A program made the translations under genes and the position numbers. A DNA stretch of 64,000 nt from Anaerolineae bacterium (lineage in GTDB: Bacteria > Chloroflexota > Anaerolineae > Aggregatilineales > Aggregatilineaceae), in contig JAHDLB010000008.1 in NCBI GenBank assembly GCA_018432315.1, forward strand, positions 124,001 through 188,000, given 5' to 3'. Below, in pieces: positions 26,131-41,275 of the stretch. Numbering within the stretch: the first letter of the stretch is position 1; every line of letters starts with the position of its first letter. The notes below the pieces were generated by a model. It did no database searches. It saw only the letters and a program-made list of their open reading frames with translations, and was not told where the DNA came from.

Positions 26131-27744
<1,614 letters not shown>

Positions 27745-28119
27745 GTGCTATCTACCACCTTTGTGCTGGGAGTCGACTCGGTTCGCGGACGGGCCCCGAA
27801 GGATGTCGGGCCAATGCAACTCCCATGCTGCATTTGGGTCACTATCACCCGCGCAGCCCGCCACTGGCACTAATCATAACATAAAAAGAATAACACTATA
27901 GACAGGTGTGGGCGGTTGTCGCTGCGTTCGAGCCCGGCTGCGAAGACCATAAAAATAGTATAGCCTGTCGTTTTTAACTAAACAAGCGATAAATTGGGGA
28001 AAATTCACTAATATGGTATTCGTGTTATGTCACGGTCGTGTGGCCCGTCCGGCAGCGGGCAAAATGGAACCCCCGGCGCGATTCGGCGGACTAACAAGGC
28101 GAACGCGTAAGGAGCGAGT
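27745..28119. other. 375 bp divergent intergenic region, AT-rich
   Basis: It separates the second S1 gene (minus) from the sigma factor gene (plus). About 27930-28030 is clearly AT-rich. On the minus strand GCGACA and TATAGT with 16 bp spacing, near 27900, may be the S1 promoter, giving a leader of about 140 nt. On the plus strand TTGGGG and TATTCG with 17 bp spacing near 28000 may drive the sigma gene. No gene or RNA gene was seen. Confidence 0.45.
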
Positions 28120-28686
28120 ATGCCTGACCACATCTGGAGCGCCCAGCCCACCGATCGCCAGCTCGTGAACGCCATCGCGCGCGGCGATTCGGGCGCGCTC
28201 GAAACGCTCTACGAGCGGCACGGCCTGCCCGTGCTGGCCTACCTGATCGGGCAGGTCAGCGATCGCGCGCTGGCCGAAGAAGTGCTGCAGGACGTGATGC
28301 TGGCTGCCTGGCAGGGCGCGGCGCGCTTCCGGGGCGACAGCTCGGTGCGGACGTGGCTGCTGGCGATTGCCCGGCGGCGCGCGATCACCGCCCGGCAGCG
28401 GCGCGGGCCGCTTGAAGCCCCGCTCGCAGACGACATCGCCGCCGACGCCGAGGCGCCCGGCGACCGGCTGGATGTCCTGGCGGATCAGGCTGCGCTGCGC
28501 GCCGCGATCGCGGAACTGCCCCCCGATCAGCGCGAGACGCTCGAACTCGTTTTCTACCACAACCTCTCGGGCACCGAAGCGGCGGAGGTGCTGGGCGTCC
28601 CGCCCGGCACGGTCAAGAGCCGCCTGCACCGGGCCAAGTCGCTGCTGCACAAGCTGCTGCGCTTACAGGAGAACGCCGATGCATGA
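28120..28686 (+). CDS. RNA polymerase ECF sigma factor
   Basis: The 188 aa protein has sigma region 2 (residues about 24-90: YLIGQVSDRALAEEVLQDVMLAAW, then WLLAIARRRAI) and region 4 (about 125-180: AIAELPPDQRETLELVFYHNLSGTEAAEVLGVPPGTVKSRLHRAKSLL). Regions 1.1, 1.2 and 3 are absent, as in ECF sigma factors. It directs RNA polymerase to a specific set of promoters. Its end overlaps the anti-sigma gene by 8 bp, showing coupling. Its activity is expected to be held by the anti-sigma protein until an envelope signal arrives. Confidence 0.93.
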   Translation: MPDHIWSAQPTDRQLVNAIARGDSGALETLYERHGLPVLAYLIGQVSDRALAEEVLQDVMLAAWQGAARFRGDSSVRTWLLAIARRRAITARQRRGPLEAPLADDIAADAEAPGDRLDVLADQAALRAAIAELPPDQRETLELVFYHNLSGTEAAEVLGVPPGTVKSRLHRAKSLLHKLLRLQENADA

Positions 28687-30673
28687 GCCGTGGCAAAGCC
28701 AACTCCCGATGTACGTAGCGGGCACCCTGCCGCCGGAAGATCGCGACGCGGTGGAGGCGCACCTGGCGACCTGTGAGGCGTGCCGGGCGCTGGTCCGCGA
28801 GTGGGAGCGCATCGGTGCCGCCGTGCGGAGCGAATCCGCCGCCCGCGTGGAGAGCGCGAGCCTGCCGCCGCTGGCGCTGAGCGTCACGCGTCCGCAAGGC
28901 GAGGCGCCTCTCTCGCGCAACGGGCGGGGCGGCACGCTTCCGGCCTGGGAGGTCTCATCACACGACGACAAGGAGACAGGTGACATGACCGTAACGACAA
29001 CCCGGACCATCCAACGAACGTGGTGGCAGCCGCTGCCACGGCCCCGCCTGGCCCCGACGCTGATCGCGGCGGTGCTGATGGCGATCTTGTTCGGCGGCGC
29101 GCTGCTGCTGTTCAACGCGCGGCAGGACGGCACCACGACCTCACCGGGCGCGCCCTCCGGCGGCGACGGGAACCCGCCCGCCGCGATCCAGAGTACGGCG
29201 ACCGAAACGCCGCCGCCCACCGCCACGCCGTTCCCCACCCAGCCGGTCGTCATTACGGCGACGTCGGTCCTGCCTACCGCCGTCCCGCCGCATGACGCCG
29301 AGGCCATGCCGCCGGCGGGCGAGCCGTCGCCAGTCGTCATCACGGCGACGCCGGTCCCGTTCGAGGGGCCTGTGATCGAGGTTCTCGATCCCACCGTCGT
29401 GCCGCCGCCGCTGGCGACCGGGGTGTCGCTGGAGGGCGTGCGCTACGAGGCGCAGGGCTGGAACAACGCCGGCCCGGCGACGCTGGCGATGGCGCTGAGC
29501 GTTTACGGCTGGGACGGCGACCAGGACACCGCCGCCGCGTGGCTGAAGCCCGATCCGGAAGACAAGAGCGTCAGCCCGTGGCAGATGGTCGCCTACGTGA
29601 ACGGGCAGACCCCCTACCGCGCCATCTACCGCATGGGCGGCACGCTGGACGTGCTCAAGAGCGCGGTGGCGGCGGGCTTCCCGGTGATCGCGGCGGTGGG
29701 GATGGACACGGAGTCGGACGGCTGGTTCGGGCATTACCAGCTCGTGACCGGCTACGACGAGGGCGCGGGTGTGCTGCTGGTCTACGACAGCTACCTGGGC
29801 CCGACGACGGAGCCGCGCCGCGTCCCGTTCAGCGAATTCGACGCCGCGTGGTGGCCGTTCAACCGGACGTTCGTCGTGGTGTTCCCCGCCGACCGGGCCG
29901 GTGACGTGCAGGCGGCGCTGCTGGGCTATGGCGGCTCGACCGTGTTGGATGTGGTGACCGATGCGAATACCGGCGAAATGCAGCAGGTGCTGCTGGGCTA
30001 CGGCAACGGCCCAGCCTACGGCGCCCGGATGGCGCTGGATGCCGCGTCGAGCGCGACGACCCAATCGCCGGAAGACGTGTGGGGCTGGTTCAACCTGGGC
30101 ACGGCGTATACCACGCTGGGCCGCTTCGAGGATGCCGCTGCCGCGTACGATCGCGCGCTCGATATCGGCCTGCCGTTCCGCGCGCTGTGGTACCAGTTTG
30201 GGCCCTATGAAGCTTACTTCAAGATCGGGCGTTACACCGATGTGATCGCCCTGGCCGCGTCCGTGCTGGACGTGACGCCGTACGTCGAAGAGGCGCACTA
30301 CTGGCAGGCTCTGGCCCACGCGGCGCGGGGCGAGGTCGAGGACGCCAGCCGCGCGCTCGAACAGGTGATCGCGCTGAATCCGAATTTCTTCGTGGGCGAG
30401 CTTGCCCGCTTCCAGGCCGCGCCCGACGTGTTCGCGCCGGTGACGCCGCCGGGAGACGCCCCGCCGGTGCTGCTGGCGACTCCCACGCCCATCCTGGCGA
30501 CGCCGATTCGGGTCGAATTGACGCCGACGCTGCCGCCCTTCCCGTCTGGCACGCCGGTCCCTGCCGAGCCGACGCTGCCGCCGACGCTCATCCCGTCCGA
30601 CACGCCGGTGCCCGCCGAGCCGACGCTGCCGCCGACGCTGCTGCCGACTGCCACGCCCATCCCGGCCAACTAG
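28679..30673 (+). CDS. Membrane anti-sigma factor fused to an extracellular C39-like domain and TPR repeats
   Basis: The 664 aa protein starts at an ATG overlapping the sigma stop. Its N terminus has the zinc anti-sigma motif H28-x3-C32-x2-C35. A basic-flanked membrane segment spans about residues 125-145, then a P/T-rich linker (150-240). A C39-like papain-fold domain follows (about 245-400), with Q259, then A264 where family peptidases have the catalytic Cys, H352 and D370. TPR-like repeats (about 430-560; WFNLGTAYTTLGRFEDAAAAYDRAL) and a P/T-rich end complete it. So the cytosolic part binds sigma and the outer part is a probable non-catalytic sensor. The binding partner is unknown. Confidence 0.88.
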   Translation: MHEPWQSQLPMYVAGTLPPEDRDAVEAHLATCEACRALVREWERIGAAVRSESAARVESASLPPLALSVTRPQGEAPLSRNGRGGTLPAWEVSSHDDKETGDMTVTTTRTIQRTWWQPLPRPRLAPTLIAAVLMAILFGGALLLFNARQDGTTTSPGAPSGGDGNPPAAIQSTATETPPPTATPFPTQPVVITATSVLPTAVPPHDAEAMPPAGEPSPVVITATPVPFEGPVIEVLDPTVVPPPLATGVSLEGVRYEAQGWNNAGPATLAMALSVYGWDGDQDTAAAWLKPDPEDKSVSPWQMVAYVNGQTPYRAIYRMGGTLDVLKSAVAAGFPVIAAVGMDTESDGWFGHYQLVTGYDEGAGVLLVYDSYLGPTTEPRRVPFSEFDAAWWPFNRTFVVVFPADRAGDVQAALLGYGGSTVLDVVTDANTGEMQQVLLGYGNGPAYGARMALDAASSATTQSPEDVWGWFNLGTAYTTLGRFEDAAAAYDRALDIGLPFRALWYQFGPYEAYFKIGRYTDVIALAASVLDVTPYVEEAHYWQALAHAARGEVEDASRALEQVIALNPNFFVGELARFQAAPDVFAPVTPPGDAPPVLLATPTPILATPIRVELTPTLPPFPSGTPVPAEPTLPPTLIPSDTPVPAEPTLPPTLLPTATPIPAN

Positions 30674-30927: not shown

Positions 30928-33900
30928 ATGGTAAGTCGTCGTCGCACATCATCTCGTTGGACCCAACGGTTGGGAGATGGCCTGCGCGAGTTGAGACGGA
31001 CACCGGTCCGTTTCGCGTTTCATCTGGCCGTTGCGCGTCTGATTACGCAGTGGCGCTCGCTGCTGACCATCGTCGCTGGGACGATCCTGGCGGCGTCGAT
31101 CGGCGCGCTGGTGCCGCTTTATACGACCGCCGTGGCCCAGGTCGGCATGACTCAGCGCCTGGACGACCAGCCCGCGCGCGATGTCCACGTCCAGGCCAAC
31201 ATCAGCCTGCGCGCGGCGGAATGGGCCGATCGCGGCGGCCTGGAGCAGCAAACCGCCGGGGCGACGGCGCTCGCCGAGGGGCTGGTCCGGCAGGACCTGG
31301 ACGCGATCGCGGGCTGGGTCGACCGGATCGTTGGCTATAACGAAACCGAGGCGATGGGCCTCTCGCTGGTGCCGGAGAGCGGCGACGACCTCCAGCCGCT
31401 GATCGGCATTCGCACGCGCCTGGGCTATTACGACGGTTGGACCGAGCAGGTACGCGTCGTCGATGGGCGCCTGCCCGAAGCGAATCCGGACGGCGTCGAC
31501 GTCGAGGGCGTGATCGGCCTGAACGTCGCCAACGAGATCAACCTGGAGCCGGGCACGGTGGTCGTGCTCGACCAGGGGTTGGACCAGCGCGGGAACGCCG
31601 GCGGCGGCCACGCGTCGAGCCGCCCGATCACGCTGCGCATCGCGGGCATCGTGGCCCCGGTCGACGAGGCCGATCCGTACTGGATGGAGCCGTCGCCGCT
31701 GCGCCTGCTCGACCGGCAGAGTGGGGCGGGGCTGTGGGATTACGAGTTCGTGTTCCTGACGGGGCGCGAGGCGGTCTTCCGCACCGCGACCGATTTCCTG
31801 CCCGACACGCCGACCAAGATCGGCTGGCGGGTGCTGCTGGCGCACGACAACCTGCCGTTTTCGCGCATCAATGTCGCGCGCGATGCCCTGCGCACGCTCG
31901 ACCGCAACATGCGCTTCACCTTCAAGGAATCGATCGCGCCCGACATCAGCGACACCAGCGTCAACACCCAGCGCCAGGACCTGGCCTTCAACTACTACAC
32001 GCGCCTGATCGATTTCGACACGATCCGGCGCGACCGTGACGACGGAATTTTGCTGGCCTATCACAACGAAGTCGAGCTGCTCGATGCGCCTTTCGGCCTG
32101 CTGCTGCTACAGGTCGGGGCGCTCGTGCTGTTCTTCCTGATGGTGACGGCGGCGCTGGTCCGGCGCGGCGAGCGGCGCGAGATCGCCATGCTGCAAAGCC
32201 GCGGCGCCTGGGACAGCCAGATCGTGCTGCTGCGCGGCATCGAGGCGCTGCTGATCTGCATCCTGGCGGTGATCGTCGCGCCGTTCCTGTCGCAGATGCT
32301 GCTGACCGCGCTCGGCCCGATGGTCGCCAACACCGAGGAATTCCCCCTGCCGCTGACGGCGGACGTGTTCCTGTTCGCCGGGCTGGCGGCGGGGGTGACC
32401 TTCCTGGCGCTGATCGGGACGCTGCGGCCCGTGCTGCGGCTGCCGCTGGTGCTGGCGGGCGGCGCGGCGGCGCGCAGCGAGCGCCAGCATTGGTGGCAGC
32501 GCTATTACCTCGACGCGATCCTGGCGCTCGTCGGGCTGGGCGCGCTGTGGCTGCTGGTCCGGCGCGGATCGCCGCTTTCGGACGTGAACCTGGGCGGCCA
32601 GCAGGCCGATCCGCTGATGCTGATGGCCCCGGCGCTGTTGTTCCTGGCGCTGGGCAGCCTGGCGCTACGCTTCTTCCCGATCGTCGCGGGCGTGGCGGCG
32701 CGCGCGGCGGCGGGGGGACGCGGCCTGTTGAGCGCGCTGGCGAGCTGGCAGCTCAGCCGCGAGCCGGTGCACTACGGGCGCATCACGTTTCTGCTGGCGC
32801 TGGCGATCGGCATTGGCTGGTTTGCGACGAGCTTCCGCGCGACGGTGTCCAACAGCCACGAGGATCAGGCGAAATACGCCGTGGGGACCGACGTGCGGCT
32901 GGTGGAGCGCGACACCAACCTGAACGCCAACCGCGCGCGTCCCGCGTCCTATTTCGCCGGGCAGGACGGGATCGCCGCCGCCAGCACGGCCTACCGGGTG
33001 TTCGGCGCCAACCTGAGCACCAGCATGGCCGGTGACCTGCGCGGCACGATCCTGGGCATCGATCCGGACACGTTTGGCGATACGCTGTACTGGCGGTCCG
33101 ACCTGGGCGCGATCTACACGCCGCGCGCGCCCGGCGACCCGCCGAACCTGCCGGAGCCGGGCTACGAGCTGCCGGTGATGCCGGACAAGGTGGGCGTGTG
33201 GGCCCGCTTCGAGGTCACCGCCGGTTTTTCGGCGGCGCAGGCGTTCCGCGCCGACGTGCCGCGCATGGTCCAGCGCACGGAGCTGGGCCTGCGCCTGCGC
33301 GACGCGGACGGCGCGTGGATCGTCGTGCCGCTGGAGCCGGTGGAGATCGAATACCTGCGCGTGGGCACCGACGTGCCCGGCATCGAGTCGCGCGGGTTCG
33401 TGACCAGCGGGTGGGTGTACTGCGAGGCGGACATCGGCGCGCTGCAGTACGAGCCGCAGGGGCCGGTCCGGCTGGTGTCGCTGTTCTGGCAGTACCGCTC
33501 GCCCACCGCCCGCGGCGAGCGCGGGATGCGCCTGACGCTGGCCGACATGACGCTGTTCGACGCGGCGGGCAACGCGACGCCCTACGAGGTGTTCGCCGGC
33601 AACGAGTGGGAGTTCCTCTACGACCGCGGCGCGACTGCGACCGGCAACGCCACCGCGGGCGGGGCGCTGGTCGGCGAGCGCGACGATGCCCTGTTCGTCC
33701 GCTGGGACCAGGACGCGCAGCGCTCGACGGTGGGCGTGCTGCTCAACTACCCGGACCTGGGGCCGATTGACGCTGTCGTGAGCCGCCGCATGCAGGAAGA
33801 AAACGGCCTGACCTACGGCCTGAACGGCACGCCGTTCACCCTGTTGAACATCGCCGGGAGCAATCTCCGCTTCCAGGCGGTGCAGGTGACCGACTATTAC

Positions 33901-34614
33901 CCGTCGCTGTTCAACCGCGCGCCTTCCGACGCCGATCCGAAGGGCAATTCGTTCATGGTGGTGGACGTGCGCGAGCTGATGTACCGGCTGAACCGGCGGC
34001 CCAGCGTGGCGATCTATCCCGACGAGGTGTGGCTGCGCCTGGATTCCGGCGTGAACGAGCGCAGCCAGTCCGAGGTCGCGGATCTGATCGGCTCGCTGGA
34101 CGGCGCCGAACAGGGCGGGGTGGTGATCCTCAGCGGCGTCACCCTGGCCGACGAGCTGGACAAGCTGCGCACCAACCCGCTGGGCCTGGGCCTGTTGGGC
34201 CTGATGTACCTGGCCTTCATCATGGCGCTGGTGCTGAGCGTGGTCGGCCTGCTGACGTATGCCGGGCTGACGGCGCAATCGCGCCGGACCGAGTTCGGCG
34301 TGCTGCGCGCGCTGGGGCTGTCGTCGCTGCGCGTGGTGGGCGGGCTGGCGCTGGAGCAGGCGTTCGTGATGGGTATCGGGGTCGTGCTGGGCGCGGTGCT
34401 GGGTTGGGTGCTCGCCAGCCAGGTGGTGCCCACGCTGGCGCTCGGCGCGACGGGCGAAAGCGTGGTCCCGCCGTTCGTGATGCGCATCGAAATCCAGCGG
34501 TTTTTGGAATACGGCCTGCTGATGCTGGTGGTGCTGCTGCTCGTGCTCAGCTCGAGCCTGCTGCTGGTTCGGCAGCTTTCGCTGGCGCGGACCCTGCGCC
34601 TGGGTGAAGAATAG
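30928..34614 (+). CDS. Large FtsX/MacB-type ABC transporter permease
   Basis: This 1228 aa permease has an N-terminal membrane segment (about residues 43-65, SLLTIVAGTILAASIGALVPLY), then a large extracellular domain. A membrane block near residues 390-510 (LLLLQVGALVLFFLMVTAALVRRGERREIAMLQSRGA) is followed by further segments, a second large extracellular region (about 670-1090) and a final block (LGLMYLAFIMALVLSVVGLLTYA, ending RTLRLGEE). Usual MacB permeases have four segments and about 400-650 residues, so this is about twice that and looks like two FtsX modules fused. It probably exports lipids, glycans or peptides or works on the wall. The 1196 aa partner lies 14 bp downstream. Confidence 0.87.
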   Translation: MVSRRRTSSRWTQRLGDGLRELRRTPVRFAFHLAVARLITQWRSLLTIVAGTILAASIGALVPLYTTAVAQVGMTQRLDDQPARDVHVQANISLRAAEWADRGGLEQQTAGATALAEGLVRQDLDAIAGWVDRIVGYNETEAMGLSLVPESGDDLQPLIGIRTRLGYYDGWTEQVRVVDGRLPEANPDGVDVEGVIGLNVANEINLEPGTVVVLDQGLDQRGNAGGGHASSRPITLRIAGIVAPVDEADPYWMEPSPLRLLDRQSGAGLWDYEFVFLTGREAVFRTATDFLPDTPTKIGWRVLLAHDNLPFSRINVARDALRTLDRNMRFTFKESIAPDISDTSVNTQRQDLAFNYYTRLIDFDTIRRDRDDGILLAYHNEVELLDAPFGLLLLQVGALVLFFLMVTAALVRRGERREIAMLQSRGAWDSQIVLLRGIEALLICILAVIVAPFLSQMLLTALGPMVANTEEFPLPLTADVFLFAGLAAGVTFLALIGTLRPVLRLPLVLAGGAAARSERQHWWQRYYLDAILALVGLGALWLLVRRGSPLSDVNLGGQQADPLMLMAPALLFLALGSLALRFFPIVAGVAARAAAGGRGLLSALASWQLSREPVHYGRITFLLALAIGIGWFATSFRATVSNSHEDQAKYAVGTDVRLVERDTNLNANRARPASYFAGQDGIAAASTAYRVFGANLSTSMAGDLRGTILGIDPDTFGDTLYWRSDLGAIYTPRAPGDPPNLPEPGYELPVMPDKVGVWARFEVTAGFSAAQAFRADVPRMVQRTELGLRLRDADGAWIVVPLEPVEIEYLRVGTDVPGIESRGFVTSGWVYCEADIGALQYEPQGPVRLVSLFWQYRSPTARGERGMRLTLADMTLFDAAGNATPYEVFAGNEWEFLYDRGATATGNATAGGALVGERDDALFVRWDQDAQRSTVGVLLNYPDLGPIDAVVSRRMQEENGLTYGLNGTPFTLLNIAGSNLRFQAVQVTDYYPSLFNRAPSDADPKGNSFMVVDVRELMYRLNRRPSVAIYPDEVWLRLDSGVNERSQSEVADLIGSLDGAEQGGVVILSGVTLADELDKLRTNPLGLGLLGLMYLAFIMALVLSVVGLLTYAGLTAQSRRTEFGVLRALGLSSLRVVGGLALEQAFVMGIGVVLGAVLGWVLASQVVPTLALGATGESVVPPFVMRIEIQRFLEYGLLMLVVLLLVLSSSLLLVRQLSLARTLRLGEE

Positions 34615-34628
34615 GTGGTGGTGGCGCA

Positions 34629-37600
34629 ATGACCCTGGGACTCATCCTGAAACGAATGCAGCGCGAATGGCGCGCGCTCGGCGTGCTGCTGCTGGCCGTA
34701 TGCCTGCTGACCGGGTTCTTTGCCCTGGGGCCGTTCTACATCCGCGCGGTGACCGAGGTCGGCCTGCGTTTCGAGCTGGACAACGCCCGGATTCAGGACC
34801 GGCAGATCAGCCTGATCGTCGATGGCGAGCCGCTCACGCCGGAGTCGTTCGCCGTCGTCGACGACGAACTGGGCGATCTGGCGGTCGGCTACCGGCATTA
34901 CATCCGCGCCGACTACACGCCGCCGACGAGCGAGGGCGGCATGGAAAATCCCGGCCTGGCGACCGCCGGCTACGTGTACCGCTACGGCGAGCCGGTCACG
35001 TCCACGTCCAGCCGCACGCAGCGAACCTACCAGCCGTTCGCCTTCGCGGATATGCCGTCGCTGCTGACCCTGGTGGAAGGGCGCTGGCCGGTGCGGCTAC
35101 CGCCGCCGGACGCCGTCGATCCGACCGGGCTGAGCGACGCCGAGCGGCAGGCGCGGCAGATCGGTATTTACAACCGCGGGCAGGTCGAGGTCGTGGTGTC
35201 GCCGGTGGTGGCCGAGCGCGCCGGCCTGGAGCCGGGCAGCCGGATCACGCTCGGCACGCGGCTGCCGGACGGCACCGGCGAGGTGGCGACGATCGTCGTG
35301 GTGGGCATCGCCGAGCCGAAAGACCCGGGCGACGTCTTTTGGGAAGGGAACCGCAACTTCATCGATGGCGCGGACGTCGAGATGGGCCTGGGCCAGTTCC
35401 GCTACGATTTCGGCTTCGCGGCCCTGCCCGAAGCGTACACCGACTGGCTGGCCGACGTGACGCCGGGCAACAGCTACGTCTACCTGATCGAAACCAACAC
35501 CGACGCGATCAACGCCGACAACATCCAGCAGATCAACGCGCGGATCCAGCGGCTGCCGGGGCGGCTGTCCGCCTACCATCCGGGCATCAACGTGCTCACC
35601 GGGCTGTCGGCGGTCCTGCAGAGCTATTCGGGCGACGTGACGGACACGCAGGGGCCGATCATCCTGCTCTCCGGCGCGATCCTGATCATGATGCTCTACC
35701 ACCTGATCAACACGGTGGCGCTGGTGCTCGAACAGCAGGGCGCCGAGTGGAGCGCGATCGTCAGCCGGGGCGGCAGCATCCCGCAGTTGGTCATGCTGCA
35801 GGCGATCACGGTCGGCGTGCTGGGCGTGATCGGCCTGCTCGTGGGGCCGCTGCTGAGCGTGGTGTTCATGAGCATCATGGAGCACATCGGCCCGCTGGCG
35901 ACGGCGCTCGGCGGGCGCCCGCTCGGCTCGACCAGCGTCCCGCGCGTGTCATTCTACCTGAGCATCGCGGCGGCAGCGGCGGCGGTCGTCGTGCTGACCG
36001 CGCCCGCCTTCCCGGCGGCACGGCGCAGCCTGCTGCGGCTCAAGCAGTTGGTGTCGCGCCCGCCCACGCAGCCCGCCTGGGCGCGGTTTGCCCTGGACGG
36101 CGTGCTGATCGTCCTGGGCGGCGCGTTCATGCTGCGGCTGTATTATCTCGTCGGCGGCGACTTCGGCGACCTGCTCAACAACATCATCGCCGCCCCGCGC
36201 GACGTGATCGCGCTCATCGCCGACAACCTGAACCAGACCGGCGGCCTGAACGACCCGTTCAACCTGCTCGGCCCGGCGCTGGTGCTCACCGGGCTGGCGC
36301 TGTTCTGGCTGCGGCTGTTCCCCTGGCTGATGGACCTGGTATCGCGCCTGTTCCGCAACAGCCGCCGCCTGACCACGCCGCTGGCCGTGTGGAACGTGGC
36401 CCGCGACCCGAACCATTACGCCCAGCTCGTGCTGCTGTTGATCGGCACGCTGGCGCTGGGCACCGCGTCGCTGGCCCTGACCGAAACCCGCGATCGCGGC
36501 GCGTGGAAGACCGCCCGTGAAGAGACCGGCGGCAGCGCGCGAATCCAGGTCAACCCGGCGGCGCTGGATGCCGGCTCGGTGGCGTGGAGCCAGCTTCCGG
36601 GCGTGACGGCGGCGGCCCGTTTCGTGCACGCGTCCGGCGATCCCGGCTCGGCGGCCAAAGAAAACGTCGAGGTGCTCGGCGTAGAGCCGGACGCCGTGAT
36701 CGCGGCGTTCCCCGAGCTGCAAGACGCCCTCGCGCCGCTGCGCGATGTCCCGGTCCCGCCGGCGCCCGGCCTGGAGCTGCCCGACAACGCCCGCACGCTG
36801 ACCGTCCAGGTCTATTCGCTGCCGCAGTCCAACCCGGACGATCCGGCGGTGGCCGTGCACCTGGTCGCCTATCTGCAGGACGCGCTGGGCGTGCCGTTCA
36901 GCGTGGCGCTCGACCTGCCGGAGTCGCTGGCGGGCGCGGACGTGTCCGGCGACGGCGACCAGTTCGACTCCTCGACGCGGCCCACGCCGGTCCAGGAGTG
37001 GCTGACGTTCGAGGGGCCGATGCCCGAGCGCGGGCGCGCGCCCTACCGCCTGATGCGGATCGGCATCAACAGCCGCCAGGGGAACCTCGACGCGTTCGAG
37101 CACGCGATCTACCTCGACCGCGTAGCCGTTCAGGACGTGTTCGGCACGTCGACTACGCTCGACAGCTTCGAGGACGGCGCGCCGTCCTGGGCCGAAGCCC
37201 GCGCGGCGAATCCCTACGCGGCGTCGTGGGTCGCCCAGACGTCGAACGTCAACCGCGTGCAGGGCGTGCTGCTGTCGCCGGTGATGGGCGCGGTGGCGGA
37301 GATTGAGGGGCCGGGGGCGCTGCGGCTGGATTATCGCATGAGCAAGATCGGCGGGCGGATGCGCGAGCCGAGCATCGTCGTCAACGAGCCGGACATCGGG
37401 CGCATCCCGGTCGTGATCTCGCCCGCCTTTGCCGAGACGTTCGCCGGGCGCGGCTCGTTCCGCTCGGCTGCCGACGAGCCGCTGAAGGTGGGCGACGCCA
37501 AGAACATCGTGCTCAACCTGGGGCCCGGCTCGGTCGAGATCGGCTACCAGGTCGCCGGGGTGCTGGACGGGCCGATCCCCTCGTTCGGCGCGAACGCGCT

Positions 37601-38219
37601 GTTCATGATCGCGCCCAAGACGCTGATCCAGCCGGTGATCAACCAGGCGGCGGTGTCCAACTTCTTCTTCGACGATAACGAGATCTGGCTGGAGCTGCCC
37701 GACCGCGAGCCGGGCGACGCGCTGGAGAGCGCGATCGCGGAGCTGGACGGCGTGACGGACGTCACCTGGGCGTGGACGCGCTACGGCGAGATCCAGCGCG
37801 AGCCGCTGCCGAGCGCGGTAGCGGGGATGCTGTTCGCCGGGTTCTGGGTGAGCCTCGTGCTGAGCCTGCTCGACTTCGGGTTTTACCTGATGGTCACCGC
37901 CCGCCAGCGGCTGTTCACCTTCGCCGTGCTGCGCTCGCTGGGCTGGAATGCCGGGCACATCTGGCGGCTGCTGTTCATCGAGCAGGTCGTGCTGATCGCC
38001 CCGGCGTTGATCATCGGCTCGCTGATCGGGGCCGGGCTGGCCTACCTGCTGCTGCCGTTCCTGGCGCTGGTGGGCAGCGAGACGCTGCAACTGCCCTGGC
38101 TGGACCTGCTGGGGATGTTGGTGGCGCTCGTCCTCTCGTTTACGATCTTGATGGGCGTGGCGGCGATTTTCCTGCGCCGCATGAGCGTGAACCAGGTGCT
38201 GCGCCTGGGTGAAGAATAA
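34629..38219 (+). CDS. Large FtsX/MacB-type ABC transporter permease, paralogue
   Basis: The 1196 aa protein has the same fused layout as its neighbour. An N-terminal segment (LGVLLLAVCLLTGFFALGPFYIRAV) is followed by an extracellular part (about residues 50-340), a membrane block with AILIMMLYHLINTVALVLEQQGAEWSAIVSRGG, a second extracellular part (about 600-1040) and a C-terminal block (LVLSLLDFGFYLMVTARQRLFTFAVLRSLGW). Both end in LRLGEE. The two genes are likely duplicates that work as a heterodimer. GTGGTGGTGGCGCA lies before the ATG; the ribosome binding site is weak, so coupling to the upstream gene is likely. Confidence 0.87.
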   Translation: MTLGLILKRMQREWRALGVLLLAVCLLTGFFALGPFYIRAVTEVGLRFELDNARIQDRQISLIVDGEPLTPESFAVVDDELGDLAVGYRHYIRADYTPPTSEGGMENPGLATAGYVYRYGEPVTSTSSRTQRTYQPFAFADMPSLLTLVEGRWPVRLPPPDAVDPTGLSDAERQARQIGIYNRGQVEVVVSPVVAERAGLEPGSRITLGTRLPDGTGEVATIVVVGIAEPKDPGDVFWEGNRNFIDGADVEMGLGQFRYDFGFAALPEAYTDWLADVTPGNSYVYLIETNTDAINADNIQQINARIQRLPGRLSAYHPGINVLTGLSAVLQSYSGDVTDTQGPIILLSGAILIMMLYHLINTVALVLEQQGAEWSAIVSRGGSIPQLVMLQAITVGVLGVIGLLVGPLLSVVFMSIMEHIGPLATALGGRPLGSTSVPRVSFYLSIAAAAAAVVVLTAPAFPAARRSLLRLKQLVSRPPTQPAWARFALDGVLIVLGGAFMLRLYYLVGGDFGDLLNNIIAAPRDVIALIADNLNQTGGLNDPFNLLGPALVLTGLALFWLRLFPWLMDLVSRLFRNSRRLTTPLAVWNVARDPNHYAQLVLLLIGTLALGTASLALTETRDRGAWKTAREETGGSARIQVNPAALDAGSVAWSQLPGVTAAARFVHASGDPGSAAKENVEVLGVEPDAVIAAFPELQDALAPLRDVPVPPAPGLELPDNARTLTVQVYSLPQSNPDDPAVAVHLVAYLQDALGVPFSVALDLPESLAGADVSGDGDQFDSSTRPTPVQEWLTFEGPMPERGRAPYRLMRIGINSRQGNLDAFEHAIYLDRVAVQDVFGTSTTLDSFEDGAPSWAEARAANPYAASWVAQTSNVNRVQGVLLSPVMGAVAEIEGPGALRLDYRMSKIGGRMREPSIVVNEPDIGRIPVVISPAFAETFAGRGSFRSAADEPLKVGDAKNIVLNLGPGSVEIGYQVAGVLDGPIPSFGANALFMIAPKTLIQPVINQAAVSNFFFDDNEIWLELPDREPGDALESAIAELDGVTDVTWAWTRYGEIQREPLPSAVAGMLFAGFWVSLVLSLLDFGFYLMVTARQRLFTFAVLRSLGWNAGHIWRLLFIEQVVLIAPALIIGSLIGAGLAYLLLPFLALVGSETLQLPWLDLLGMLVALVLSFTILMGVAAIFLRRMSVNQVLRLGEE

Positions 38220-38248
38220 GTGTGAGTGGAGCAAGGCGGGTTATTGAT

Positions 38249-39205
38249 ATGAGCCAACTGACGAACGTTACCCCCCAGGCCGCGCCCGAGTCGCAGGCCG
38301 ACCAGCGCCCGATCTTCATCGAGTGCGAGAACCTGGTGAAGATCTACAAGATCGCCGATCTGGAGGTCGTCGCGCTGCAAGGGCTGGACCTGCTGGTCCG
38401 CGCCGGGGAGATGATGGCGCTGGTCGGGCCGTCGGGGTCCGGCAAGTCCACGCTGATGAACATCCTGGGCGGGCTGGACTTCCCGACCGCGGGGCGCGTG
38501 CGTGTGGGCGACTATAACCTGCTGGAGATGACGCGCCGCGATCAGGTGCGCTACCGCCGGCACATGGTTGGCTTCGTGTGGCAGCAAACGGCGCGCAACC
38601 TGCTGCCCTACCTGACCGCCATGGAGAACGTCGAGCTGCCGATGGCCCTGGCCGGGTTCCCGGCCCGCGAGCGCCACGATCGCGCCGCCGAGCTGCTGGA
38701 CCGTGTGGGGCTGGCCGACCGCATGAAACACCGGCCCGATCGCCTGTCCGGCGGCGAGCAGCAGCGCGTCGCGATTGCGGTGGGCATGGCAAACCGCCCC
38801 GCGATGCTGCTGGCGGACGAGCCGACGGGCGAGGTGGACAGCACCTCCGCCGAGGCGATCTTCCACGCGCTGCGGGCGCTGAACGAGGATTTTGGCGTGA
38901 CGGTGATCGTGGTCACGCACGATATGACGGTCGCCACGCGCGTCGATCGCGTGGTGGGGATGCGCGACGGGCGGACGAGCACCGAGATTCTGCGCCGCCG
39001 CGATGGCGATGTCGCGCTCGTCGAGGAAGAGTACGCCATCCTGGACCGCGCCGGGCGCTTGCAGCTCCCGGAGGCGTACATCGAGGCGCTCGACATGGAA
39101 GACCGCGTGCGGCTGCGCTTGCAGCAGGATCACATCGGCGTGTGGCCCGAGCACACCAACCACGACGAGCCGAGCGCTAACGGCCAGGAGAGCGAGACAC
39201 GATGA
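38249..39205 (+). CDS. ABC transporter ATP-binding protein with C-terminal extension
   Basis: The 318 aa protein is a LolD/MacB-type ATPase. Walker A is GPSGSGKST (about residue 65), the signature is LSGGEQQRVAIAVGMA, and Walker B is MLLADEPTGEVDS. After the H-loop (VVTHDMTVA) an unusual extension of about 65 residues continues to the end (RRDGDVALVEEEYAILDRAG, then LPEAYIEALDMEDRVRLRL), absent from normal members. The ATG at 38249 follows AAGGCGGG; an in-frame GTG at 38222 is an alternative. The end overlaps the next ATPase gene by ATGA. Confidence 0.92.
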   Translation: MSQLTNVTPQAAPESQADQRPIFIECENLVKIYKIADLEVVALQGLDLLVRAGEMMALVGPSGSGKSTLMNILGGLDFPTAGRVRVGDYNLLEMTRRDQVRYRRHMVGFVWQQTARNLLPYLTAMENVELPMALAGFPARERHDRAAELLDRVGLADRMKHRPDRLSGGEQQRVAIAVGMANRPAMLLADEPTGEVDSTSAEAIFHALRALNEDFGVTVIVVTHDMTVATRVDRVVGMRDGRTSTEILRRRDGDVALVEEEYAILDRAGRLQLPEAYIEALDMEDRVRLRLQQDHIGVWPEHTNHDEPSANGQESETR

Positions 39206-39945
39206 GCAACGGACACGACACCTTTTCGAGCAGCCTGGAGCCGGTGATCAGCCTGACCAACCTGCACCGGATCTACCACCTGGCCGGCGAGGACATCCAC
39301 GCGGTGAACGACGTGACGCTCGACGTGTGGCCGCACCAGATGACGGCGATCGTGGGGCGGTCCGGTTCGGGCAAGACGACGCTGCTGAACCTGATCGCCG
39401 GGCTGGATACACCGACTCGGGGCGAGGTCCGCATATTGGGGCGCGACCTGGGCCAGATGGACGAGAGCGAGCGGCTCCACCTGCGGCTGACCAAGCTCGG
39501 CTTCATCTTCCAGAGCTTCGGGCTGATGCCGCTGTTGAGCGCGCGCGAGAACGTGGGCGTGCCGCTGCGCATGCGCGCCGTCGATCCCGACGAGCGCGAG
39601 GCATACGTGCAGGAAGCGCTGGAGTGGGTGGGCCTCGCCGACCGCGCGCACCACCGCCCGTATGAACTGTCCGGCGGCGAGCAGCAGCGCGTCGCCATCG
39701 CGCGGGCGCTGGCGGAAGGTCCGGAGCTGGTGCTGGCCGACGAGCCGACCGGCCAGCTCGACACGCGCACCGGGCGCCGGATTCTGGACCTGCTGCGGCG
39801 GTTGGTGGAGGAGCGCGGCGTCACGCTGCTGGTCGTCACGCACGATCCGCAGGTCTTGGCCGAGGCCGATATCGTGCACGAGATGCGCGACGGGATGCTG
39901 GTCGAGTCGCGTGCGAAGGAAGGCGTCGTCCTGCCGGGCGTCTAG
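39202..39945 (+). CDS. ABC transporter ATP-binding protein
   Basis: The 247 aa LolD/MacB-type ATPase has Walker A GRSGSGKTT, Q-loop in FIFQSFGLMPLLSARENV, signature LSGGEQQRVAIARAL, Walker B LVLADEPTGQLD, and H-loop VVTHDPQ. With the longer ATPase next door it can form a heterodimer serving the two large permeases. It starts in the ATGA overlap and is followed by a propeller protein 37 bp on. Confidence 0.93.
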   Translation: MSNGHDTFSSSLEPVISLTNLHRIYHLAGEDIHAVNDVTLDVWPHQMTAIVGRSGSGKTTLLNLIAGLDTPTRGEVRILGRDLGQMDESERLHLRLTKLGFIFQSFGLMPLLSARENVGVPLRMRAVDPDEREAYVQEALEWVGLADRAHHRPYELSGGEQQRVAIARALAEGPELVLADEPTGQLDTRTGRRILDLLRRLVEERGVTLLVVTHDPQVLAEADIVHEMRDGMLVESRAKEGVVLPGV

Positions 39946-39982
39946 CGCCGGGCGGGGCCGCGTCGCGGTGAGGTGAAGGGGC

Positions 39983-41275
39983 GTGCTGGGGCTGTCGTGG
40001 CGTAACCTGGGTGTGGTCGTCGTGGTGGCCGTGGTGATCGGCCTGGCGATCGCCGCCGGGCGCGACGACGCCGAAGCGCCCGACCCGGAGAACGTCGCGC
40101 TGGGCTACGTGCCGCTGGTGACGCCGACGCCGATCCCGCGCACGGTGCAAATCCCCGACCTGCCGCGGCCCGGCGGCGGCTCGAACAACAGCGCGCTGGT
40201 GATGGTGCAGGGGCTGGTCGAGCGCCGGCTGGTGATCTGGCCGGTGTCCGGCGTCAGGCCGCCCCTGGCAGTCGACCATCACGTCAACGTGTGGCTGTTG
40301 ATGCCCGACCCGACCCGGTCGCGCGTGCTGTACAGCACCGACAGCGCGATGATGGTGCTGGACCTGGACGTGCAGCGCGCGCACATCGTCGGCGAGCTTC
40401 CCCCGGACAACACGATGATCGCCGCGCAGTGGTCGCCCGATGGCCGGTCGATCGCGTACGTGGTCGAGGCGGGCGATCACTGGATCGCGTACACCACGCT
40501 GGCCGACGGATCGCGCGCCGCTGCGGAGATGGTGCGCGTCCCGCGCGGGCTGCCGGTGGACGTGGCGTGGCTGGCCGATGGCCGCCCGGTGTCGATCGTG
40601 ATGGGCGTGGGGCCGGTGGGCGGCCTGGAAGCGCAGTATTGGCTGTACGATCCGGCCACCGGCGACAGCATCGCGCTCTCGCCCGAAGTCGAGACGTTCC
40701 AACCCTGGTCGCCCTGGCGTTCACCCGACGGCGAGCACCAGGTCTACCCGATGGCGAGCTGGGGCCGGGTGCGCTATGGCGAGGCGTGTATCGAGGGCGC
40801 GCTGGGGCTCGTCGGCCCGGACTGGCTCTACCTGACCTCGCTGGGCGCGCGCGGCGCGCCGCGCGCCGTGGCCTTCGAGATCGAGAACATGTACCTGGAC
40901 CGCCCAACGTGGCTGTCCGATGGGCGGGTCGTGTTCCGCGCCGTGGCCGACCGGGCGTGCAAGGCGGTCGGATCGGGCCTGTTCATCGCCCGGCTGGGCG
41001 AGACGCCGCGCCAGATCGTCGCCATCGAGCCGGTTTTCGACTCGGGCGATCCGGACGAACTGCTGTGGAGCGTGCCCTACACCGTCAGCCCGGACCAGCA
41101 GTCGGTGGCGTGGGTCACCAACGACGTCCAGGCTCAGCGCAGCATGGTTTACCTCTCGCCCATCGACGGCGGCGCCCCCACCGAAACCCTGTTCGAAACC
41201 GAGCCGCTCACCAGCCGGAAGCCGTTCGCCTTCCAGGATCAGGAGATGATCCTCCAGCTTCTGTGGCTGCCGTGA
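39983..41275 (+). CDS. Membrane-anchored beta-propeller (TolB-like) protein
   Basis: The 430 aa protein starts at a GTG after GAGGTGAAGGGG. An N-terminal membrane anchor (LGVVVVVAVVIGLAIAAG, about residues 9-26) and a P/T linker come first. The remainder is a set of WD40-like or TolB-type blades with SPDG-like turns (WSPDGRSIAYVVEAG, RSPDGEHQVYP, LSDGRVVFRAV, SPDQQSVAWVT). It is probably an extracellular accessory of the ABC exporter (operon position, inference). The operon ends at the terminator at 41284. Confidence 0.8.
   Translation: MLGLSWRNLGVVVVVAVVIGLAIAAGRDDAEAPDPENVALGYVPLVTPTPIPRTVQIPDLPRPGGGSNNSALVMVQGLVERRLVIWPVSGVRPPLAVDHHVNVWLLMPDPTRSRVLYSTDSAMMVLDLDVQRAHIVGELPPDNTMIAAQWSPDGRSIAYVVEAGDHWIAYTTLADGSRAAAEMVRVPRGLPVDVAWLADGRPVSIVMGVGPVGGLEAQYWLYDPATGDSIALSPEVETFQPWSPWRSPDGEHQVYPMASWGRVRYGEACIEGALGLVGPDWLYLTSLGARGAPRAVAFEIENMYLDRPTWLSDGRVVFRAVADRACKAVGSGLFIARLGETPRQIVAIEPVFDSGDPDELLWSVPYTVSPDQQSVAWVTNDVQAQRSMVYLSPIDGGAPTETLFETEPLTSRKPFAFQDQEMILQLLWLP

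What the first reader, a model, noticed from the sequence alone, without database searches (positions are those of the whole stretch)
28120..30673. ECF sigma factor coupled to an anti-sigma factor with a catalytically dead C39-like sensor
The anti-sigma protein has the H-x3-C-x2-C zinc motif inside, a membrane segment, and outside a C39-like papain fold followed by TPR repeats. In the segment where C39 peptidases have Q-x4-C-G-P the Cys is Ala (A264), while H352 and D370 remain. A pseudopeptidase may bind a peptide or wall fragment as the signal, releasing the sigma factor.
Basis: partly seen in the sequence, partly recalled or inferred. Interest (0 to 1): 0.62.

Follow-up and report, generated by a model that had tools for sequence, protein, structure and literature searches.

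The report
Sigma-factor lock with a dead-protease sensor
A bacterial gene switch seems to be held shut by a membrane protein whose outer part is a protease that has lost its cutting residue but kept the rest of its active site, so it probably senses a peptide-like molecule by binding it rather than cutting it.

Summary
Window 28120-28686 encodes an ECF sigma factor; 28679-30673 a 664-aa membrane anti-sigma factor (zf-HC2 zinc domain, TM helix, C39_2 papain fold, TPRs). The nucleophile is Ala264; Q259, N262, N263, H352 and D370 remain, and the outer part has no Cys.

Six genomes of one bacterial family carry this fusion; none of the six proteins has the Cys (A, S, S, S, Q, D). Of 68 unfused C39-TPR domains sampled, 67 have it and one has TGA there, possibly selenocysteine. 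The dead domain is the most constrained part (dN/dS 0.10, one pair) and models as a C39 fold.

New: (1) GGAACC-N17-GACTAA precedes the sigma gene in 6 of 6 genomes; the only other exact copy precedes a small secreted-protein gene whose homologue in the window's genome has a near copy. (2) An in-frame ATG with Shine-Dalgarno before the TM helix recurs in 9 of 24 members of this anti-sigma lineage and 0 of 20 other anti-sigmas, predicting a second product without the sigma-binding domain.

Sensing by binding is the best reading; ligand, sigma release and short form are untested.

The parts
28066..28094 (+). ECF-type promoter-like element GGAACC-N17-GACTAA, probably autoregulatory
   Evidence: Same element with the same spacing at the sigma gene in 6 of 6 genomes with the fusion; only exact match in the window's genome; reversed-pattern control 0
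28120..28686 (+). ECF sigma factor, 188 aa
   Evidence: Pfam Sigma70_r2 and r4_2; 61-69% identical sigma gene before each of the five other fused anti-sigmas
28679..30673 (+). Anti-sigma factor with C39 pseudopeptidase and TPR sensor, 664 aa
28691..28786 (+). zf-HC2 anti-sigma domain core, res 5-36 (H28, C32, C35)
   Evidence: Pfam 43.2 bits, cut-off 22.2
28970..28975 (+). Internal Shine-Dalgarno AAGGAG
28985..28987 (+). Internal in-frame ATG (M103): predicted start of a short form, res 103-664, without the anti-sigma domain
   Evidence: SD of 5 nt or more in 9 of 24 linkers (0.49 expected) and at 2 of 157 post-TM ATGs; 0 of 20 other anti-sigma genes; translation not shown
29057..29113 (+). 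Transmembrane segment, res 127-145
   Evidence: hydropathy peak 2.59
29435..29794 (+). Peptidase_C39_2-like pseudopeptidase domain, res 253-372
   Evidence: Pfam; AlphaFold2 model of res 240-590, mean pLDDT 84.2, pTM 0.83; VIA Z 17.4 to PeiR and to 3erv
29453..29455 (+). Gln259, retained at the oxyanion position
29468..29470 (+). Ala264 (GCC) in place of the catalytic Cys
29732..29734 (+). His352, retained
29786..29788 (+). Asp370, retained
30080..30388 (+). TPR repeats, res ~468-570
   Evidence: Pfam TPR_2, TPR_1, TPR_19; helical in the model
30928..38219 (+). Context: two giant FtsX-type permeases, then two ABC ATPases (38222-39945)
   Evidence: Pfam FtsX and ABC_tran; permeases also follow in G001 and G011; no match to the sigma motif within two mismatches elsewhere in the window

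Best explanation
An ECF sigma / anti-sigma signalling pair whose receptor is a C39-family pseudopeptidase. Off state: the cytoplasmic zinc domain holds the sigma factor at the membrane. Outside, the C39 fold keeps its groove residues (Q259, N262, N263, G265, P266, H352, D370) but cannot cut, so it can bind a peptide-like ligand (peptide, leader, wall stem peptide, or the substrate of its active paralogues) without destroying it. On state: binding, perhaps with the TPRs, exposes the linker or TM segment to proteolysis or otherwise loosens the zinc domain, and sigma is freed. Sigma then transcribes its own operon from GGAACC-N17-GACTAA and, in at least some species, a small secreted protein. Shown by sequence: architecture, loss of the Cys with retention of the other active-site residues, constraint on the domain, co-occurrence, the conserved element. 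Predicted by modelling: the fold. Inferred: ligand binding, sigma release, direction of the switch, promoter activity.
For: 0 of 6 fused proteins (7 C39 domains) have the Cys, against 67 of 68 unfused domains; the 68th (L090) has TGA at that codon in a genome with tRNA-Sec and SelB. The replacements use the codons GCC, AGC, TCC, CAG, GAC. Q, W, N, N, G, P, H and D are invariant across 5 fused and 2 unfused proteins and the same motif residues hold in G007 unit 2. dN/dS between G001 and G014: C39 0.10, TPR 0.20, linker 0.39, zinc domain 0.40. The model puts A264 at the start of a helix, H352 at the start of a strand and D370 just after the next strand; PMC6363468 describes Cys on helix 1 and His and Asp on strands 4 and 5 in LahT (passages). 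Structural neighbours are C39 and other papain-like enzymes, one of them a wall-lytic enzyme. One fused relative ends in LysM, 38.9 bits. Conserved element in 6 of 6 genomes. Near-copy before a secreted-protein gene in the window's genome.
Against: No ligand, no binding data, no demonstrated sigma release. The residue at the nucleophile position varies, so its identity carries no specific role. C-to-S in three members could in principle leave trace activity. G007 unit 1 has lost more of the motif. The secreted-protein site is present in 2 of the 3 fused genomes that have the homologue; G007 lacks the site, and G001, G003 and G014 gave no homologue. One-mismatch hits in the six genomes (37) do not exceed the reversed control (52). 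dN/dS rests on one pair, and pocket distances were not measured.
Confidence: 0.6

Rival explanations
1. The C39 part is a structural or anchoring module, such as a wall tether like the LysM or SH3 ends of relatives. The TPRs or C-terminal domains do the sensing, and loss of the Cys simply stopped unwanted cleavage.
For: Relatives of the same zinc-domain lineage carry SH3_3 domains in place of C39 (8 of 10 proteins scanned hit SH3_3 at E<=0.01, three of them below the curated cut-off). One fused member adds LysM.
Against: Groove residues Q, N, N, H and D stay invariant and the C39 domain is more constrained than the TPRs (0.10 against 0.20, one pair). A mere tether would not need H and D.
Confidence: 0.2
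2. The domain still catalyses something by another residue (Ser or Asp as nucleophile, or an acid-base reaction), so it is a changed enzyme rather than a pseudoenzyme.
For: H and D are retained; three members have Ser at the position and one has Asp.
Against: The window's protein has Ala and G011 has Gln, neither a usual nucleophile. No shared replacement residue.
Confidence: 0.07
3. The gene is decaying: the Cys was lost by drift and the outer domain is unused.
For: Replacement residues differ. G007 unit 1 has lost more of the motif.
Against: Open frames in 6 genomes, dN/dS 0.10, invariant groove residues, conserved promoter-like element.
Confidence: 0.05
4. The signal is set by the balance of two products of one gene: full-length anti-sigma and a short form (from M103) that competes for ligand or dimerises, fixing the threshold. 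Not exclusive of the best explanation.
For: Internal ATG with an SD of 5 nt or more in 9 of 24 linkers of this lineage against 0.49 expected; 9 of 31 linker ATGs against 2 of 157 post-TM ATGs; 0 of 20 other anti-sigma genes.
Against: At the looser 4-nt limit the contrast is weaker: 12 of 24 (2.14 expected, up to 9 in 300 shuffles) against 4 of 20 controls. G007 lacks it. No translation evidence. It could be a relic of a fusion of two genes.
Confidence: 0.3

Closest known systems
C39-like domain (CLD) of HlyB-type type I secretion transporters
   Same: C39 fold without the catalytic Cys, kept for binding an unfolded substrate (PMC6363468, passages read)
   Different: CLD is an N-terminal extension of an ABC transporter; here the domain is predicted extracytoplasmic, of the C39_2 type with TPRs, and on an anti-sigma factor
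RsiV of Bacillus subtilis (anti-sigma V, lysozyme receptor)
   Same: Membrane anti-sigma whose outer part binds a wall-active protein and is then cleaved to release sigma (PMC6066255, abstract and passages read)
   Different: The outer domains were not compared here, and a signal-peptidase site was not looked for in this protein
Class I (ASDI/ZAS) zinc anti-sigma factors
   Same: zf-HC2 domain with H-x3-C-x2-C, encoded next to an ECF sigma (PMC7406223, part 1 of section 6 and passages read)
   Different: No C39 sensor is mentioned in the parts read (figure and supplements not seen). Within this lineage the outer domain is swapped (C39, SH3, SnoaL, fasciclin+esterase, beta-propeller), whereas that paper reports that fused domains are typically conserved within a group
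Unfused C39_2-TPR proteins of the same class, e.g. L001 and L003 in the same genome
   Same: Same C39-TPR unit, 41-51% identical by segment
   Different: Cys present and no zinc domain
PeiR pseudomurein endoisopeptidase and the 3erv C39-like peptidase
   Same: Best structural matches to the C39 part, Z 17.4 each
   Different: By their titles enzymes, and not anti-sigma factors; a PeiR entry titled C90A suggests that its Cys90 is the nucleophile (inference)

Membership tests
Class I zinc anti-sigma factor (ASDI/ZAS) | zf-HC2 domain with H-x3-C-x2-C | tested here: met
   43.2 bits over cut-off 22.2; H28, C32, C35
Class I zinc anti-sigma factor (ASDI/ZAS) | Encoded with an ECF sigma factor | tested here: met
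   Overlapping sigma gene; a related sigma precedes all 6 fused genes
Class I zinc anti-sigma factor (ASDI/ZAS) | Binds and inhibits its sigma factor | not testable with these tools
   needs biochemistry
C39 / C39_2 cysteine peptidase | Family sequence profile | tested here: met
   PF13529 45.8 bits, cut-off 24; PF03412 has no match in the genome at E<=0.001
C39 / C39_2 cysteine peptidase | Papain-like C39 fold | tested here: met
   Predicted model, pLDDT 84.2; VIA Z 17.4 (3erv), 16.5 (ComA peptidase)
C39 / C39_2 cysteine peptidase | Catalytic Cys | tested here: not met
   Ala264; no Cys outside the zinc motif. A homologue of the family, not a peptidase of it
C39 / C39_2 cysteine peptidase | Catalytic His and Asp, oxyanion Gln | tested here: met
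   Q259, H352, D370 invariant
CLD of type I secretion | Part of an ABC transporter | tested here: not met
   Domain order zinc-TM-C39-TPR
CLD of type I secretion | Binds substrate without cleaving | not testable with these tools
   needs a binding assay
RsiV-type receptor anti-sigma | Signal-peptidase site exposed on ligand binding | not tested
   no call made
PA2778 family cysteine peptidase (NF033920) | Score over curated cut-off | tested here: not met
   35.7 bits, cut-off 150

The most novel reading that the evidence does not exclude
A lineage of anti-sigma genes that each make two membrane receptors from one frame: a full-length anti-sigma and, from an internal ribosome site just before the TM helix, the same sensor without the sigma-binding domain. 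In the C39 branch the sensor is a peptidase turned receptor that reads the same peptides its active paralogues cut, with the short form acting as a decoy that sets the threshold of an autoregulated, very small sigma regulon.
Probability: 0.3. Interest if true: 0.8.

Novelty: new variant of a known kind. Interest (0 to 1): 0.62.

Why it matters
For many anti-sigma factors the signal is not known (general knowledge). Here the sensor is a recognisable enzyme fold that lacks only its nucleophile in all six fused proteins found, which points to a ligand class (peptides or wall fragments) and to single-residue tests in the groove. A conserved, evenly spaced promoter-like element gives a ready reporter. 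If the internal start is real, one anti-sigma gene makes both a lock and a possible decoy, a layout for which the searches listed no paper by title.

Tried and rejected
PF03412 (classical C39) in the window's genome: no match; PF13529 is the right family. Sequencing error or a replacement Cys: rejected. More promoter targets with one mismatch: 37 hits in six genomes, reversed control 52; G003 and G007 alone exceed their own controls slightly (8 to 5, 9 to 6). One hit shared by G000, G001 and G014 lies in a stretch that I take from its residues to be rpoC (recall, not tested). The first organism-name search with the window protein confirmed nothing; the alignment gave 8 loci. A repeat-insertion origin for the linker stretch LSRNGRGG was dropped because relatives have similar NG(R/K) stretches. 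Intrinsic terminator after the anti-sigma gene: none by the scan, so read-through into the FtsX genes is possible. The PDB search by sequence gave mainly TPR proteins and a weak RsiW match (E 0.0018). Paper searches for anti-sigma with C39, Chloroflexi, pseudoenzyme, pseudopeptidase or internal translation listed no report of this protein type by title or abstract start; some searches returned zero papers, and the other listings were not all read (PMC2700814, which holds two of the terms, was not). One origin or two for the fusion is unresolved: the tree needs 2 changes, 1 is not excluded, and the G007 domains sit on a long or weakly supported branch.

On checking it has TGA exactly at that codon, with the frame open on both sides; this is now stated.

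Full report
What is there. An ECF sigma gene (28120-28686) overlaps the start of a 664-aa anti-sigma gene (28679-30673). Pfam finds zf-HC2 (res 5-36), Peptidase_C39_2 (253-372) and TPRs (~468-570) over cut-off. One clear TM segment, 127-145, separates the zinc domain from the rest. The motif reads Q259-G-W-N-N-A264-G-P; H352 and D370 are present. C32 and C35 of the zinc motif are the only cysteines in the protein; the same holds for G001 and G014, while G011, G003 and G007 have one or two more (res 603 and 629; 622 and 700; 361), none at the motif.

Is the missing Cys a rule? The window's genome has three PF13529 proteins; the other two, without the zinc domain, read WNNCGP. A search of 41 genomes with the protein and of 154 genomes of the order with the zinc-domain alignment gave six proteins with the zinc domain fused to C39-TPR, all in the window's own family (6 of its 18 genomes held). 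Of the order search's matches only 30 were fetched as loci, so a fusion with a more diverged zinc domain could have been missed. Residues at the nucleophile: Ala (G000), Ser (G001, G014, G003), Gln (G011), Asp (G007 unit 2); G007 unit 1 is more degraded. Codons are GCC, AGC, AGC, TCC, CAG and GAC, so the Ser of G003 and that of G001/G014 use different codon families. Of 68 unfused C39-TPR domains from the loci then held (identical or contained copies, seven redundant loci and short matches dropped by the script), 67 carry Cys. The 68th, L090 of G356 (another family of the class), has TGA exactly at the Cys codon, WNN-TGA-GP, with the frame open on both sides. Its genome has a tRNA-Sec (66.0 bits, gathering score 47) and a SelB (348.8 bits, cut-off 242); the RNA after the TGA folds no better than shuffles (z -1.09). 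So it may be selenocysteine, a nonsense change or an error. A class sample (396 genomes) and a phylum sample (400 genomes, E<=1e-105) showed no other match reaching the zinc domain among the rows listed; both are samples, one search lists only its best rows, and both scored three candidates per genome.

Is the dead domain used? Q259, W261, N262, N263, G265, P266, H352 and D370 are invariant among five fused and two unfused proteins. Between G001 and G014, dN/dS by a simple Nei-Gojobori count is 0.10 for C39, 0.20 for TPR, 0.39 for the linker and 0.40 for the zinc domain (one pair, dS 0.18-0.33). In that pair the domain is kept, without its nucleophile, under the strongest constraint in the protein.

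Fold. Residues 240-590 modelled with 9 sequences: mean pLDDT 84.2, pTM 0.83. A264 (model 25) opens a helix, H352 (113) opens a strand and D370 (131) follows the next one. PMC6363468 describes Cys on helix 1 and His and Asp on strands 4 and 5 for the LahT C39 peptidase (passages). Best VIA matches: PeiR pseudomurein endoisopeptidase Z 17.4 (144 residues, 2.3 A), 3erv C39-like peptidase Z 17.4 (157 residues, 2.9 A), ComA peptidase Z 16.5. Foldseek's first hit is also 3erv, E 6.5e-6. No coordinates were available, so distances in the pocket were not measured.

Promoter. At the sigma gene in all six genomes lies GGAACC-N17-GACTAA; in G007 it abuts the first possible ATG, so the likely start there is a later one. 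Whole-genome exact matches: one per genome, at this place, except G011 with two; reversed-pattern control 0 in all six. The second G011 site starts 83 bases before the ATG of a 149-aa protein with a signal-peptide-like N-terminus (by eye). Its homologue in the window's genome (G000:C21:29164-29640, minus strand) has GGAAC-N18-GACTAA 190 bases upstream, one of six sites within one mismatch in that genome. By my arithmetic, the odds that one of the five sites other than the sigma gene's own falls within 200 bases upstream of one named gene on the right strand are about 1 in 10,000. I looked for the homologue in 13 of the 18 family genomes; 7 have it. The one in G007 lacks the site, as do those in G002, G005 (one of two copies, the other being cut short upstream), G010 and G013, where the fused pair was not found. 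Pfam finds no family for this protein. With one mismatch the hits (37) do not exceed the control (52), so a wide regulon is not supported by this motif.

Internal start. M103 (28985) is preceded by AAGGAG (28970-28975), 24 codons before the TM segment. In 24 members of this zinc-domain lineage (six same-genus near-copies dropped), 9 have an in-frame ATG with an SD match of 5 nt or more between zinc domain and TM; codon shuffling gives 0.49 on average and 3 at most in 300 runs. Among ATGs, 9 of 31 in linkers against 2 of 157 after the TM (Fisher p 1.3e-6). In 20 other anti-sigma genes of the same order, picked by me from the list, 0 of 20. At the looser limit of 4 nt the figures are 12 of 24 (2.14 expected, 9 at most), 12 of 31 against 14 of 157 ATGs, and 4 of 20 controls. 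The feature was first seen in the window's own gene, so the window is part of the 9. It occurs in five of the six C39 fusions (not G007), in the SnoaL type L073 and the propeller types L049 and L079 at 5 nt, and in the fasciclin-esterase type L074 at 4 nt; none of the eight proteins with an SH3_3 hit has an ATG with SD of 4 nt or more. In many members the SD overlaps Glu codons and in two Lys-Asp codons, which argues for the nucleotides rather than the residues being kept. The short form would be TM-linker-C39-TPR, much like the unfused paralogue L001. Translation is not shown.

Context. A gene for an S1-domain protein lies upstream, divergent from sigma, also in G001, G014, G011 and G003; two FtsX permeases follow in the window, G001 and G011, then two ABC ATPases in the window. 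G014's contig ends just past the anti-sigma gene, G003 has no permease match in the 2.3 kb held, and G007's pair lies among other genes. The window holds no other match to the sigma motif within two mismatches. PMC10318531 says that C39_2 peptidases are associated with transporter genes (passages). A transporter beside a peptide-type sensor is suggestive only.

Names. Contigs of identical length tie G003, G001, G014 and G011 to records JAFGTJ010000452.1, DYGX01000004.1, DYEN01000176.1 and JAADYV010000488.1, metagenome-assembled genomes labelled Anaerolineae, Thermoflexus, Anaerolinea and Chloroflexi.

Judgement. The nearest precedents are the Cys-less C39-like domain of HlyB, which interacts with its unfolded substrate (PMC6363468, passages), and RsiV, an anti-sigma that binds lysozyme (PMC6066255, passages). 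It is a new variant of a known kind.

Noticed in passing
L090 1918-1935 (G356): An unfused C39-TPR gene has TGA exactly at the catalytic Cys codon (WNN-TGA-GP); the genome has tRNA-Sec and SelB. Candidate selenocysteine peptidase, nonsense change or error; the fold after the TGA is not significant.
   Followed up: partly
28970-28987; also L064, L066, L067, L073, L075, L049, L079, L083: Internal Shine-Dalgarno plus in-frame ATG between anti-sigma domain and TM helix, recurrent in this lineage.
   Followed up: yes
L119 90-539 (-), L155 1492-2025 (-): Small secreted-protein family without Pfam match, with the sigma motif upstream in two genomes; several homologues also share TTACAG/CTGTAA-like repeats upstream.
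   Followed up: partly
L068 6193-8670: A fused anti-sigma with two C39-TPR units in tandem, the first more degraded, the second with Asp at the nucleophile position.
   Followed up: partly
L073, L074, L079, L049, L069: The same zinc-domain lineage carries SnoaL, fasciclin plus esterase, beta-propeller or SH3 outer domains: sensor swapping on one anti-sigma stem.
   Followed up: partly
30928-41275: Two giant FtsX permeases, two ABC ATPases and a 430-aa protein without Pfam match: probably one transport system.
   Followed up: no
26131-27744 (-): S1-domain protein ending in a very acidic tail with a long run of consecutive Asp.
   Followed up: no
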